From Dasypus novemcinctus (lineage: Eukaryota > Chordata > Mammalia > Cingulata > Dasypodidae): DNA of 64,000 nt. Position numbers and translations under genes: made by a program. The stretch lies in assembly GCF_030445035.2 (NCBI RefSeq), contig NC_080704.1, positions 20,688,499 through 20,752,498 on the forward strand, given 5' to 3'. Shown here piece after piece: positions 23,101 through 53,100 of the stretch. Positions within the stretch are counted from its first letter, which is position 1, and every line of letters begins with the position of its first letter. Under the pieces are notes generated by a model. It saw only the letters and a program-made list of their open reading frames with translations, did no database searches and had not been told where the DNA came from.

Positions 23101-26100
23101 ATACTAGAGAGAGAGAGAGTTTGAATACATGTATTTCAGTTATCATCATAGATGGAACATTTCTCCAGTTTTTTTCCAGTCTGCATCTCTTTCGTCATGA
23201 TTTTCCTGACAGGTGAAATTGATGCTGCACTTACTATTTTCCAGGCATTGTGCTGAGTGCTTTAAATGCATTATCCCATTTGATCCTCACAACGACTTTA
23301 TTATTTTTGTCACCTCACAGATGAAGAAGCTGCTCTTTGGGTTAGAGACATGGCTAAAGGTCACATGGTTAGTAAGAGCTAGAGCTGGGATGTGGACCCA
23401 GGTAGTCTGCCTCAAGAGCCCATGCTCTTAACCATTGTGCTTTACTGCTTCATGGTGAATATGCCAGAAGTCACTTAAACTAGTTCCCTATTGTTGCTTA
23501 TTTGTTTGTTTCCAGTTTTCATGATTCTGTAAAGAACATTCTCGTACCAAAAATTTAATGCAAATCATTTTTTATTATTCCTTTGGATAAATTCCTAGAC
23601 ATGTGATAAGTGAGTCAAATGGCACAAATACTTTTATTGTTTTTGATACAAACTGCTCTTTAGAAAGACTGCACCAATGTAAACTCCTAAAAACAGTGTG
23701 CCAGAGCATCTATTTTAGTAGAAAGACCACAATTTTTGAAGAATCTCCTGGTTTAGGCAACAAAATTATTTAAAAGAAAATGCTCTCCTCTAGGACAGGA
23801 GTCTGCAAACTACAATCCACAGGCCAATCCTGCCACCAGTTTTAGTGACTTAAGTTTTATTGGAACACAGCCACACTCATTCACTTACCTATTGTCGGTG
23901 GCTGCTTCCACACTACAAGAGCAGAGTTGTGTAATTGCGACAGACATCATAAGGCTCACAAAGCCTAAAACAGTTACTATCTAGCCCATTACAGAAAGTT
24001 TAATGACCTGTGAACTACGATACTAATAAGAGATTGGCTGCTTAGAAGTAGAGAGACAAAGGACCCATAAAACATTAGGAAGACTTGCCACATAAGAGGC
24101 CAAAGAGGCTAATGTCTCTACCTTGGTGAGTGTAGCTTTGGCAGACAACAGCAAACTGTTAAGAAACATGAGCTCTGAAAGCAGAGAAAACTGGGTTAGA
24201 GTTCCACAACTGCTATACTCCCCAGATCTGTGACTCTGGGCAGGATACTTCACTCAATTCCCTAAAGTTCAGTCTCATTATTTATAGGATGGGGATAATA
24301 AAAGTACCAATATCATGGGTTTCATTACGAGCATTAATGGAGAAGAGGCATGCCAGCTGATTAATACAATGCCTTGCACCAAAAAAAGCACTCAATAAAT
24401 GTCAGTTATTATTACTAACACCTAAAACCAGCCCTCAAAATAGGAAACAAAAGCTTCCGTGGCCTTGCATCAAGGATGTTGATGACTATAGGTTAAATAG
24501 TGCTACCTAGTTTATGAATCATTTCACATCCACGAAAATTGGGAGGAATGGAGAGAGATGACAAGGAATAATCTTGGTCACTTTTATTTTCCATTAAAGC
24601 TGGGTAATTCATTGTCTCAGACCTGTATTCCAGGCTTGTTTGTGCTTTTACCAAGATTTCTACAGGTAAAAGTGCTGAAAGAAAAGAACTCTCAATCACG
24701 AATTCTATATTCAGCAAAACTATCACTCAAGGGAAAGACATTCTCAGAAAAAAGAAAACTAAAAGAACGTGTCCTTAGCAGACCTACTCTTACAGAATGG
24801 GTAAAAAAAAATAAGATCTTCAAACAGAAAAGATATGATGAAAGAAGGGCTCCTGGAGCTTCAGGAAGAGAGAATAATGGGAAGAGCAGAAAATAAGCAT
24901 GTAGATAAACTGGATCTCTCATGCATTGCTGGTAGAATGCAAAAAGGTAGAGTAATGCTGGAAAAGCTTGGCAGTTTCTTATAAAACTAAACATGCATTA
25001 CCAAATGACCCAGAAATTGCACTCTTGGGCATCTATTCCAGAGAAATGAAAGCTTGTATTCACACAAAAACCTATTCATGAGTGTTCATAGCAGCTTTAC
25101 TTGTAACAGCCAAAACCTGGAAACAATCCAGACATCCTTCAGCAGGTAAATGGCTAAACAAACTATGGTACATCTGTACCATGAATATGATTTAGCAATA
25201 AAAAAGAACAGAAAACAACAGCAAGATAAGTAAATGCAATACTATCATGAGTTTTCTAAATCATATGTGATGAGTGAAATAAAAATTAAAACACAATCTG
25301 ATACCTAAGACAATGATATTTAAAAGTGGGGAGGGTAAAGGCACTTAAATGAAAGTAAGGTTTGGATACTTCCCTCTTTTTTATGTAGGTTTTTTATGTT
25401 GTTGTTGTTGTTGTTTTTGAGGTAATGGGAGCCAGGAATTGAACCCAAGACCTCATACATAGGAAGCCAGCGGACAACCACTGAGCCACATCAGCTCCTC
25501 TTAGTTTTTTCATTTCTTTTGTTTGTTGTAGTGGTTTTTTTTTAAGGAGGCATCAGGAACCGAATCCAGGACCTCCTATGTGGGAAGCAGACACTCAACC
25601 ACCTAAGCCACATCTGCTCCCCAGGACACTTCACTCTTAAGTGGTAAAATGTTAAGTCAGTAGACTGTGATGAGTCACATAAGTATTTAATACTACCCAG
25701 AGCAACCTCTAGGGTAACTATACAAAGCCATATATTCAAAAACACCATAAATAAATCAAGATGGAATACTAATATTCACATAACCCAAAGGAGTAGTAAA
25801 AAGGAACAAGGGAAAACAAGCAGAAAAAAAATAAAATGGCAGACTTAAGCCCTATGATATCAATAATCACCTTAAATATACATGATCTAAATACACCAAT
25901 TAAATGGCAGTGATTGGCAAAGTGGATTAAAAAAACACAAGACCTAACTACTATGTGTTGTTTACAAGAAACTTGCTATAAATTCAATGACATAGATAGC
26001 TTGAAAGTAAAAAGTATGGAAAACATACAATGCAACATTAATTTTAAAAAGCAGAGAGGCTGTATTGATATCAGATAAAGTAGACTTCAGAGCAAAGAAA

Positions 26101-50100: not shown

Positions 50101-53100
50101 GTTACAGTCAGTTAAGATTTTCTTTTGTTTTTTAAAGTTCTTTCAACTCGCATATACTCTGCATGTTAGCATATATCGCCCTCATTTTAATGAAAGCCAC
50201 TGATTTAAAAAAAAAATTAAAAGATAACACACAAAACCATTGACTAGATGGAGAAAAATTCTGTTCTATGTTGCTAGGCATCCTTCAAATCACCCTTTAG
50301 GAATTGTCACTTAAGTCTGTTATTAATGTACATAATTGTTCTTAATTGTTCTTGTCAATCAAGCCATGTATCTGCATCTTTATCAAATTAAAAAAAAAAT
50401 AAGAGGGCAATAGGAGCAGTATGAAAAAGAAGAGGCAAAAACAACGCCCAGACCGCACGCCACTGCATCTCTGCGTCCAAAGCCATGTCCTACCACCAGC
50501 ACCACGCCCAAGAGAAAGGCTGAAGGGGATGTTAAAGGAGATAAAGCCAAGGTAAAGGATGAAACACAGAGAAGATCTGCAAGATTATCTGCTAAACCTG
50601 CTCCTCCAAAGCCAGAGTCCCAGCCTAAAAAGGCCCCTGCAAAGAAAGGAGAAAAGGTACCCAAAGGGAAACAGGGGAAAGCTGATCCTGGCAAGGATGG
50701 GAACAACCCTGCAGAAAATTGATGCTAAAACAGACCAGGCACAGAAAGCTGAAGGTGCTGGAGATGCCAGGTGAAGTGTGTGCATTTTTGAGCACTGTCT
50801 ACCTCTGGTGACTGTACAATTTGAAATACTATTTTTATCAAGTTTTATAAAAATGCAAACTTTTGTTTTCCTTTTTTTTAAGCTATGTTGCTAGCATCCA
50901 GAACACTTCATTCTTGTTTTTGGGGGAAGGGACAAATGTCATGAATAGAATGCCTCCAAAGCTGGACTGATACAGGAAAAAACACCTTTTCCCTCTAGTG
51001 TTTTGAGAAACTTCCTCTTTATTCCCAGGAGAAGGGAATCCCTGACGCTGATAAACATTATTCACCTTGGCACAGATGTCTTGTGGTATAGAAAACTAAA
51101 ATTCATTTTTATGTCCTCATGTTCTCTTCTCCCTCTCTGCCTTCAGCACACATTTGACTCCTCTAAGCCCAGAGACCTGTTGGGGCCTGACCCAAAAAAT
51201 TTGGTTGTGAGGATGTCAGGCAATCCAGACTTTCCAGTGATGCCATGAAAATGGCATCCCTCAAAAGACTAGCAATTCCTTTTTCAGACTGTGGGTCTTC
51301 AAACTGATAACTCTACCATTTTCATTTCATTTATTCAAAGTCAGGGTCAGCTCAGTAAGAGTTGTTAAACAACATGCTAAATGTGAAATGTCAACCCTCT
51401 CTCTAAACTTCCCCTGTTCAGAGCATTAAATGAAGACTTCACTGGGTTTTATAGTGGCTTTTTGATTTTAGTAGCACACTGAAGAAGGGAGTTTGAAAGT
51501 TGTTGTGTACTGTCTGCCCATGTCCTATCTGAAATACCATTGATTGTTTATGAAAAGTATCTTTAATAAAGCTGGATACAGTTTGGCTTTGAAAAAAAAA
51601 AGAGGGCAATAGATGGGATTCTTGATTGTGGTGGTAGATATACGAACGTCATAAAATTGCATAGAATTAAATTTACACACACAAATTCTTACAAATAAAA
51701 CTAGACAGCTGAATGATATCTGTGGATTATATCAATGTCAGTATCTTGGTTGGGATTTTTTCCTATAGTTTTGCAAGAGGTTAACATTGGGGGAAATGAG
51801 TAAGGGATAAAAGGGATCACTCTGTATTATTTCTTACAACTACATGCGCATCTACAATTATCTCAAAATAAAGTATTTAATTTAAAAATAGCTATCACTA
51901 GCTTGCATTAAGGATGGTTTTGAATCTAGATTAAAGCATGCTGCTTATAATCTGTGCAATTCAAACTTACCAACATTGGGAGGGTTGCAGAGAGATGAGG
52001 TAGTATCTGGACTCGTGCTCCTCTTTTCCAGAAAAACTGAGTAATTCACCCTCTTAGGATTATTTGCCACACTGGATTCTCCTTGTGGCACATCTGCTGT
52101 GGGTAGTGCTATAGTAGCCTGGGCAGATGAGAGACCACGGATGACACTTTTAATATCCTCATCAAAGAAGTAGGACAGTACAGCGAGCCCAGGAAATGGG
52201 CTGTCTGGACTGACATATGACTGTAACGAATGTACGGAGATGATTTGGGGAAGTGGTAGACTCTCCGTGTGGCTCGCCTTCTCCTCCCTGAGCACTGGCG
52301 GTTCAGGGCATGCTGCTGACTGAAGAGATGTTCCTACACGGCTGGTCTGGACACGGTTTTCCTGCTCTCTACAATTTCCCTGTCCAAGGCGTGAGAACAA
52401 AATGGGTTAGGCTCTTACTTTCAGTTCCTGGACTTTATGCATGAGGTATGTGATCAAAACATTTCTGTGTAAGTTCAGACAACCCCTAAAATGACAGAAA
52501 CCTAGTATAAACCATTGTAAGCGAAAATGTGAATTAAAAAGTTGGTAAATGCACTAACACTTATTTTCCCTGTGACATTATTTTCTATTGTTAAGGATAA
52601 ACGATGTCTTTTTATTATAATTGTTATTCCTCTTAAAGCCTCCATTTTAGCAGGGAGCAGGTGTAGCTCAGGGGTTGAGCACCTACTTGGCACGCATGAG
52701 GTCCTAGGTTCAATCCCCGGTACCTCCTTTAAAAAAAACACTATTGCAGATTGTTGTGGAATGGGTGTAGTTCAGTGCATGTATGAGTCCCCAAGTTCAA
52801 TCCCCGGTACTTCCTAAAAAAAATACAACTACATTTTAACTGCATTTTGTACATTAGGATTCCAAACATAAAAATACTCACTGCCATACCTTTATCAAAT
52901 CTAAACTTTAGCATGCTTTCAACTGACATTTAGTCCACTATGCACTGCTAAAGCAAGTAGCAATCTGCCTTGCTAATTGTGCAGAGTTATTAGTTCTCTA
53001 TCACTTCTAACTGACAGGTGTCTTAAGGAACTAGAGCAGGGGCTCTTAACCTTTTTGTTGCACAGACCCCTTTGCCAGTCAGATGAAAACCACAGACTTC

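What the first reader, a model, noticed from the sequence alone, without database searches (positions are those of the whole stretch)
24534..52379. Tandem amplification of a symmetric-phase exon in a BEND2-like gene
Eleven copies of one 123-132-bp exon lie in series in the minus-strand gene, between the 409-bp exon and BEN domain 1. All are phase 1-1 and share the core (Q/E)TSLE...LLEND-S-G-x-D and a PPSFG-like end. Eight have an open frame with GT and AG in place, so up to about 330 residues of repeated acidic/Ser-rich sequence could be added, and copy number can vary without frame change. I do not recall such an array being described for BEND2; whether it is specific to armadillos is unknown to me.
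Basis: partly seen in the sequence, partly recalled or inferred. Interest (0 to 1): 0.88.

Follow-up and report, generated by a model that had tools for sequence, protein, structure and literature searches.

The report
Ancient tandem exon array in BEND2
In this mammal, probably an armadillo, the germ-cell gene BEND2 carries a row of eleven related small exons that seem to have arisen long ago by repeated copying of the end of a neighbouring exon, and relatives of these exons occur in other genomes, apparently including ours.

Summary
Confirmed: eleven related phase 1-1 exons lie between a 409-bp exon and BEN domain 1 of a minus-strand BEND2 gene. Corrections: the repeated unit is about 1.3 kb of exon plus intron, and the 3' end of the 409-bp exon is a twelfth, probably founding, module; seven copies have an open frame and both splice sites, c11 has a very poor donor, c10 lost its acceptor, c2 and c5 look dead; the array is not armadillo-specific. 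Unit introns differ by a mean K2P of 0.43 in a star-like tree, pointing to one old burst, and module profiles found relatives in other, unnamed DNA sources, some pairing with particular copies. A published human BEND2 exon 9 primer matches the module core with 2 mismatches. Frame is kept (11/11 without frameshift, 10/11 stop-free; intron windows at most 6/11 and 3/11) while residues change at about the neutral rate (omega 1.07). A dispersed LINE-like element, antisense, ends 6 to 12 nt before the acceptor, which suggests how the first copy became an exon. Most likely role: a flexible spacer between the BEND2 N terminus and its DNA-binding domains. RNA inclusion in this species is untested.

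The parts
51971..52379 (-). 409-bp exon (human BEND2 exon 5 equivalent); its 3' end (about 52090-51971) is module 0 (c0)
   Evidence: Entry phase 0, exit phase 1; human exon 5 primer matches 52302-52322 with 3 mismatches, 0 in 100 shuffles; module homology E 3.5e-21
48577..48699 (-). module exon c1, 123 bp, intact
   Evidence: acceptor 7.9, donor 8.8, open
47278..47403 (-). module c2, frame open, splice sites degraded (probably dead); clusters with groups I and II of other sources
   Evidence: acceptor 1.7, donor -3.0; UFBoot 81
46645..46770 (-). module exon c3, 126 bp, intact
   Evidence: acceptor 10.5, donor 5.0
40181..40306 (-). module exon c4, 126 bp, intact
   Evidence: acceptor 5.0, donor 10.3
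38852..38977 (-). module c5, in-frame stop, donor lost (dead)
37324..37446 (-). module exon c6, 123 bp, intact; closest to the human exon 9 primer (2 mismatches)
   Evidence: acceptor 8.5, donor 8.8
36027..36149 (-). module exon c7, 123 bp, intact
   Evidence: acceptor 11.4, donor 8.8
34153..34278 (-). module exon c8, 126 bp, intact
   Evidence: acceptor 9.3, donor 10.3
32845..32970 (-). module exon c9, 126 bp, intact
   Evidence: acceptor 6.4, donor 8.8
30696..30827 (-). module c10, frame open, ancestral acceptor lost; in-frame cryptic AGs would start the exon at 30812 (score 2.2) or 30809 (4.2)
24534..24659 (-). module c11, frame open, AG present, very weak GT donor; pairs with P0029 from another source
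   Evidence: acceptor 6.3, donor -2.0; UFBoot 92
24435..52084 (-). whole span of the roughly 1.3-kb exon-plus-intron units
   Evidence: unit profile HMM hits
20957..21157 (-). BEN domain 1, first exon (entry phase 1, takes any module donor in frame)
18336..18457 (-). BEN domain 1, second exon
   Evidence: acceptor 11.4, donor 9.6
15832..16054 (-). linker exon between the BEN domains
12716..12919 (-). BEN domain 2, first exon
   Evidence: acceptor 12.0, donor 3.9
5006..5196 (-). BEN domain 2, last coding exon with stop codon

Best explanation
This is the N-terminal exon array of BEND2, not a local armadillo novelty. Shown: eleven modules plus one inside the 409-bp exon, kept in frame, in units of exon plus intron. 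Inferred origin: a LINE-like element lay antisense in the intron after the large exon 5. A tandem duplication with one breakpoint inside exon 5 (about 52090) and the other inside the element joined antisense element sequence to the 3' third of exon 5. The element's pyrimidine-rich antisense strand helped to supply an acceptor and the exon kept its own phase-1 donor, so a new phase 1-1 exon arose in one step. The 1.3-kb unit then multiplied in a burst, roughly when placental mammals diversified. Inferred function: modules are spliced in series, each adding about 41 or 42 unfolded, acidic, Ser/Thr-rich residues, as a flexible, phosphorylatable spacer between the N terminus and the BEN domains of full-length BEND2. 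Selection keeps frame and splice sites but hardly the residues, so modules can be lost or skipped without harm to the C-terminal DNA-binding part.
For: Array and unit. The 409-bp exon with seven or eight modules and five C-terminal exons joins into one open frame of 740 or 782 residues ending in a stop, with two full BEN domains (E 2.8e-21). Coding constraint: 11/11 copies of the same length modulo 3 and 10/11 stop-free, against at most 6/11 and 3/11 in 20 intron windows, and at most 0.78 and 0.57 in 196 overlapping windows along the units. Relaxed residues: omega 1.07 on nine copies, not different from 1. Age: mean intron K2P 0.43 over 65 pairs, star-like tree, SINE copies inside the array 92.7 and 93.6 % identical (two pairs). 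Shared: 28 module relatives, 7 of which were rows of the query profile; pairings c0 with P0028 and P0030 (split 98), c11 with P0029 (92), c2 with groups I and II (81). Human: primer for BEND2 exon 9 (PMC13006400, passages) matches c6 with 2 mismatches, 5 of its 6 best places are module exons, and 60 shuffled primers reach 5 at best; fusion transcripts beginning at exon 9 are reported (PMC5773598, passages). Origin: dispersed copy L006 matches 29/30 nt of the upstream consensus and then departs; three dispersed copies end 6 to 12 nt before the acceptor. No fold: mean pLDDT 52.
Against: No RNA of this species was available. Three of seven intact acceptors and one of seven donors lie below the window's 95th percentile, c11's donor is poor, and four of eleven copies are damaged. 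Species of the related contigs are unnamed, so a placental-wide age rests on divergence with a recalled clock. A single 20-nt primer is thin evidence for the human exon; other primers failed: human exon 4-5 forward, human Rev1 and Rev2, mouse cloning and 255P1 primers and the second mouse guide were no better than shuffles. The spacer role rests on composition, omega and a low-confidence model.
Confidence: 0.78

Rival explanations
1. The array is a decaying relic: in this lineage most modules are skipped or unused and only one or two are spliced.
For: Omega about 1; c2 and c5 look dead and c10 and c11 are damaged. [quoted passage not shown]
Against: Seven copies keep AG, GT and frame after about 0.2 substitutions per site each; intron windows of the same units do not keep frame. 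In mouse the full-length protein is needed for the ovarian reserve.
Confidence: 0.2
2. Each module is a docking or regulatory site, for example a beta-TrCP-type phosphodegron (DSGxxS), and copy number sets protein half-life.
For: DSG.{2,3}[ST] occurs in 3 of 12 window modules and 8 of 28 others against 0.07 and 0.19 expected from within-module shuffles; the human exon 9 primer reads DSGQDS in the module frame (frame inferred). The END-S stretch is the best-kept ten bases of the exon (0.83). The motif itself is recalled.
Against: 9 of 12 window modules lack the motif; modules are related by descent, so the shuffle test overstates; CK2-type sites are not enriched in the window (18 against 17.4), though they are in the others (50 against 31); omega about 1. 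No paper in the library holds both BEND2 and beta-TrCP.
Confidence: 0.1
3. Diversifying selection: residues change faster than neutral because the region is in a conflict, as might be expected for a germ-line gene.
For: Second codon positions differ most, third least (0.35/0.39/0.29 for all eleven); mean exon K2P 0.51 with c0, 0.47 without, exceeds intron 0.43.
Against: Omega 1.07 is not different from 1 (2 delta lnL 0.13) and M2a is no better than M1a (2 delta lnL 1.3). In another alignment the exon is slightly more alike (0.655) than most intron stretches (0.54 to 0.62). Power is low with about 42 codons.
Confidence: 0.12
4. Assembly or repeat artefact.
For: Repeats and retroelements abound in the region.
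Against: Unit introns differ by 27 to 36 %; relatives exist in other DNA sources.
Confidence: 0.01

Closest known systems
BEND2 (human, 14 exons; mouse Gm15262/Bend2)
   Same: Two C-terminal BEN domains; human exon 5 primer site in the 409-bp exon and exon 9 primer site in modules
   Different: Seven usable modules here; human would have at most four exons (6 to 9) between exon 5 and BEN1 if BEN1 begins at exon 10, which I inferred by counting and did not see. The mouse exon 11 guide site resembles BEN1 here, but its 5 mismatches do not beat shuffles
Genes with tandemly duplicated symmetric-phase exons (recalled examples: NBPF, LPA, TTN PEVK)
   Same: Serial, same-orientation, same-phase exons multiplied as exon-plus-intron units
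   Different: Old burst without later homogenisation; residues near-neutral; acceptor next to an antisense LINE-like element
Exonization helped by antisense LINE-1 sequence (recalled phenomenon)
   Same: Antisense element supplies pyrimidine-rich sequence upstream of the AG
   Different: The exon body is coding sequence related to exon 5, not transposon

Membership tests
BEND2 orthologue | Two C-terminal BEN domains | tested here: met
   PF10523 49.9 and 34.6 bits against a cut-off of 23.2 after splicing
BEND2 orthologue | Match to published human BEND2 sequence | tested here: met
   Exon 5 primer 3 mismatches, 0 in 100 shuffled windows; exon 9 primer 2 mismatches, shuffled best 5. Not matched beyond shuffles: exon 4-5 forward (6 mismatches), Rev1 (6), Rev2 (5); exon 4-5 reverse lies at the exon 5 site with 3 mismatches but shuffles reached 2
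BEND2 orthologue | X linkage next to SCML2 and CDKL5 (recalled) | not tested
   The genome search answered only once; a later SLED-family request met a busy machine
BEND2 orthologue | Germ-cell expression | not testable with these tools
   No RNA data
Tandem exon duplication array | Adjacent homologous exons in one orientation | tested here: met
Tandem exon duplication array | Symmetric phase allowing in-frame gain or loss | tested here: met
   Model open with and without c11
Tandem exon duplication array | Inclusion in mRNA | not testable with these tools
   Only human exon 9, from print
Exon with LINE-assisted acceptor | Dispersed element runs up to the acceptor and stops at the exon | tested here: met
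   L006 29/30 from -43 to -14, then 4/12 and 16/40; L006, L007 and L008 end 12, 7 and 6 nt before the exon; the 34 of 40 scored genome matches (55 candidates) that lie outside the array cover only query 314 onwards
beta-TrCP phosphodegron | DSGxxS-type motif kept | tested here: inconclusive
   3 of 12 and 8 of 28 modules

The most novel reading that the evidence does not exclude
BEND2 carries a placental-wide, copy-number-variable exon array, founded when an acceptor helped by an antisense LINE element cut loose the end of exon 5, in which reading frame but not sequence is selected: a length-tuning tether, possibly with phosphodegrons, for a meiotic DNA-binding protein. Its run of same-phase introns also offers many in-frame break sites, which would help to explain why human BEND2 tumour fusions that begin at exon 9 work.
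Probability: 0.2. Interest if true: 0.75.

Novelty: new variant of a known kind. Interest (0 to 1): 0.52.

Why it matters
Mouse BEND2 is needed for meiosis and its full-length form for the ovarian reserve; that form is reported to run anomalously on gels because of an unusual N terminus (PMC12367297, passages), and BEND2 fusions recur in tumours (PMC5773598, PMC13006400, passages). If the N terminus is built of serial copies of one exon, that oddity gets a testable cause, orthologues can be aligned correctly, and there is a clear case where frame is selected while sequence drifts.

Tried and rejected
SUMO-interaction-like motifs: 2 of 12 and 2 of 28 modules, no more than shuffles. CK2 sites as a feature of the window's modules: not enriched. 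Another module upstream at 61474 (suggested): no module exon found there; it looks like another LINE copy (element recalled). Four-unit block duplication (c4-c7 to c8-c11): c4 with c8 has UFBoot 92 on protein, but the unit trees do not support it; the tree of all units joins c8 with c9 instead (90). Mouse cloning primer as a module start: best place is the start of c2, but 4 mismatches do not beat shuffles (3). Human primers Rev1 and Rev2 of PMC5773598: 6 and 5 mismatches, not beyond shuffles; Rev2's best place is in c3. Positional orthology by best BLOSUM score: most hits score highest with c1 or c9, so it says little beyond c0 and c11. The iqtree codon script stopped half-way; its log gave omega and my own likelihood script did the rest. 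A first window test gave no value for the exon itself and was repeated. The second half of a divergence check failed with a maths error; its first half is used. Literature: (listings only) showed no paper about a BEND2 exon array; one search was uninformative; Ma et al. 2022 (PMC9132480) is not held. This is not proof that none exists.
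Full report
What is there. On the minus strand between a 409-bp exon (52379-51971) and BEN domain 1 (21157) lie eleven copies of one exon, c1 to c11. A profile built from them finds these eleven in the window and one more, weaker place at 52090-51931: the 3' end of the 409-bp exon is itself a module (c0). A unit profile of 1318 nt matches from 52084 to 24435, so exon and intron were copied together. The same profile has five weaker places outside the array or inside an insertion (60116-59957, 44388-44258, 23420-23704 on the other strand, 19196-18794, 1155-1038), which I take for copies of the dispersed element in the intron. 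The wide gaps hold later insertions: a LINE ORF1 remnant, SINEs, and an SMC-type and an HMG14/17-type retro-copy.

Splice sites and frame. With a simple score matrix (recalled consensus frequencies), seven copies have acceptors of 5.0 to 11.4 and donors of 5.0 to 10.3; c11 has AG (6.3) but a donor of -2.0; c10 has lost AG, keeps a good donor (8.8) and has weak in-frame cryptic AGs; c2 and c5 have no usable donor, and c5 has a stop. Joining the 409-bp exon, seven or eight modules and five downstream exons gives one open frame of 740 or 782 residues that ends in a stop and holds two complete BEN domains, 75.9 bits in all. All joins from the 409-bp exon through the modules into BEN1 are phase 1. 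Exons upstream of the 409-bp exon were not found by the splice-site scan, so the start of the protein is missing.

Is it coding? In a 111-nt exon window, 11 of 11 copies have the same length modulo 3 and 10 of 11 are stop-free. In 20 overlapping downstream intron windows of the same alignment the most is 6 of 11 and 3 of 11, even with the best of six frames. In 196 overlapping windows along the whole units (at least seven copies each) the highest shares are 0.78 and 0.57. Yet the residues are free to change. On nine copies (c2 and c5 dropped) omega is 1.07 with iqtree and with my own script; omega = 1 fits as well (lnL -960.47 against -960.40), and M2a is not better than M1a. By NG86 over 36 pairs mean dN is 0.46, mean dS 0.59, the median ratio 1.04, with 19 pairs above 1. 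Over all eleven copies the second codon position differs most and the third least (0.35/0.39/0.29). Mean exon K2P is 0.51 with c0 (66 pairs), 0.47 without (55), and intron K2P 0.43 (65 and 54 pairs). In another alignment of exon and flanks, however, the exon is slightly more alike (0.655) than most intron stretches (0.54 to 0.62), so exon and intron diverge at much the same pace. The END-S core is the best-kept ten bases of the exon (0.83).

How old? The unit trees are nearly stars: terminal branches 0.19 to 0.29 and internal ones 0.004 to 0.027 in the intron tree of ten units (c2 and c11 left out for lack of sites). In the tree of all twelve, c8 and c9 join with support 90 on a branch of 0.023. 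At a recalled mammalian rate of 2.2e-9 per site and year a K2P of 0.43 is about 98 million years, with a wide margin. Two pairs of SINE copies inserted in the array are 92.7 and 93.6 % identical, so they are much younger.

Other sources. Searching 5.8 billion predicted proteins with the module profile found 7 proteins, and with a widened profile 28 at E up to 0.1 (2e-28 to 8e-7); 7 of the 28 were themselves rows of that profile. They lie in unnamed contigs of up to 12.4 kb, which I take for animal DNA, species unknown. In a tree of 12 window modules and all 28, c0 with P0028 and P0030 is split from the rest with 98, P0029 pairs with c11 (92; both also lack the same stretch just upstream of the exon, by eye), and groups I and II with P0009 join c2 (81). 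Eight proteins (group III) form their own clade (100) with no window partner; many other nodes are weak. P0015 and P0018, of groups I and II, have the same longest contig length of 12416 bases, which suggests two modules on one contig; I could not fetch it. P0027 carries, upstream of its module, a stretch that by eye resembles the translated intron of the units here.

Human and mouse. From passages of PMC10855420 and PMC13006400: a human primer for the EWSR1::BEND2 exon 5 fusion matches the 409-bp exon with 3 mismatches of 21 (0 in 100 shuffles), and a primer for BEND2 exon 9 matches c6 with 2 mismatches of 20; five of its six best places are module exons, and 60 shuffled primers reach 5 at best. 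PMC5773598 (passages) reports expressed MN1:BEND2 transcripts that begin at exon 9. So a module appears to be a spliced exon in human. Other primers did not match beyond shuffles (see Tried and rejected). In mouse the full-length protein, predicted at 80.9 kDa, runs at about 130 to 140 kDa, put down to an unusual N terminus, and its loss leaves males fertile, the authors proposing that the smaller p80 suffices (PMC12367297, abstract and passages). That paper calls p80 a form lacking the N terminus and also suggests an exon 11-skipped transcript. The array would lie in that N terminus; this link is my inference.

Origin. A genome-wide search with 501 bases around c4 gave 40 scored matches of 55 candidates: six in the array, and the other 34 cover only the part from 7 bases upstream of the exon outwards. 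So the intron side is a dispersed element and the exon is not. Against a profile of the acceptor region, three dispersed copies (L006, L007, L008; the only ones fetched from elsewhere) end 12, 7 and 6 nt before the exon. L006 is 29/30 identical to the upstream consensus from -43 to -14 and then departs (4/12, then 16/40 in the exon), whereas the 409-bp exon is nearer to the module in the exon (22/40, 53/86) than upstream of it (12/30, 5/12). The junction thus lies about 6 to 12 nt before the acceptor, as expected if a duplication joined an antisense LINE-like element to the interior of exon 5. That the element is LINE-1 or HAL1 is recalled.

Function. The modules are acidic (15 %) and Ser/Thr-rich (25 %), and a model of one relative (P0004) with a 12-row alignment has mean pLDDT 52, so no fold is supported. 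With omega near 1 but a guarded frame, a length-giving flexible spacer fits best. A degron reading is possible but weak. None of this was tested in cells.

Noticed in passing
49664-50029 (+): Retro-copy-like open frame with an SMC N-terminal domain (SMC_N E 2.4e-26; SMC2 recalled) in the intron after the 409-bp exon.
   Followed up: no
50414-50722 (+): HMG14/17-like retro-copy (E 8.4e-22) in the same intron.
   Followed up: no
about 15 to 25 nt upstream of several module exons, e.g. 48723, 46794, 39002, 32995, 24674 (-): A second AG in the antisense element sequence, in some copies scored higher than the exon's own acceptor (4.7 to 10.6); in c1 and c3 it lies 24 nt upstream, so it would add 8 in-frame codons. 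Alternative acceptor use is possible.
   Followed up: partly
+10 to +30 after the module donors: The intron start is slightly better kept among copies (0.71) than the exon (0.655).
   Followed up: no
40841-41184 and 43313-43660 (+): Two SINE copies 93.6 % identical between c3 and c4; family DAS recalled.
   Followed up: partly
61474-61535: Looked like a module flank but no module exon follows; probably another LINE copy.
   Followed up: yes
43908-44357 (+): LINE ORF1 remnant between c3 and c4 (Transposase_22 E 2.6e-19).
   Followed up: no
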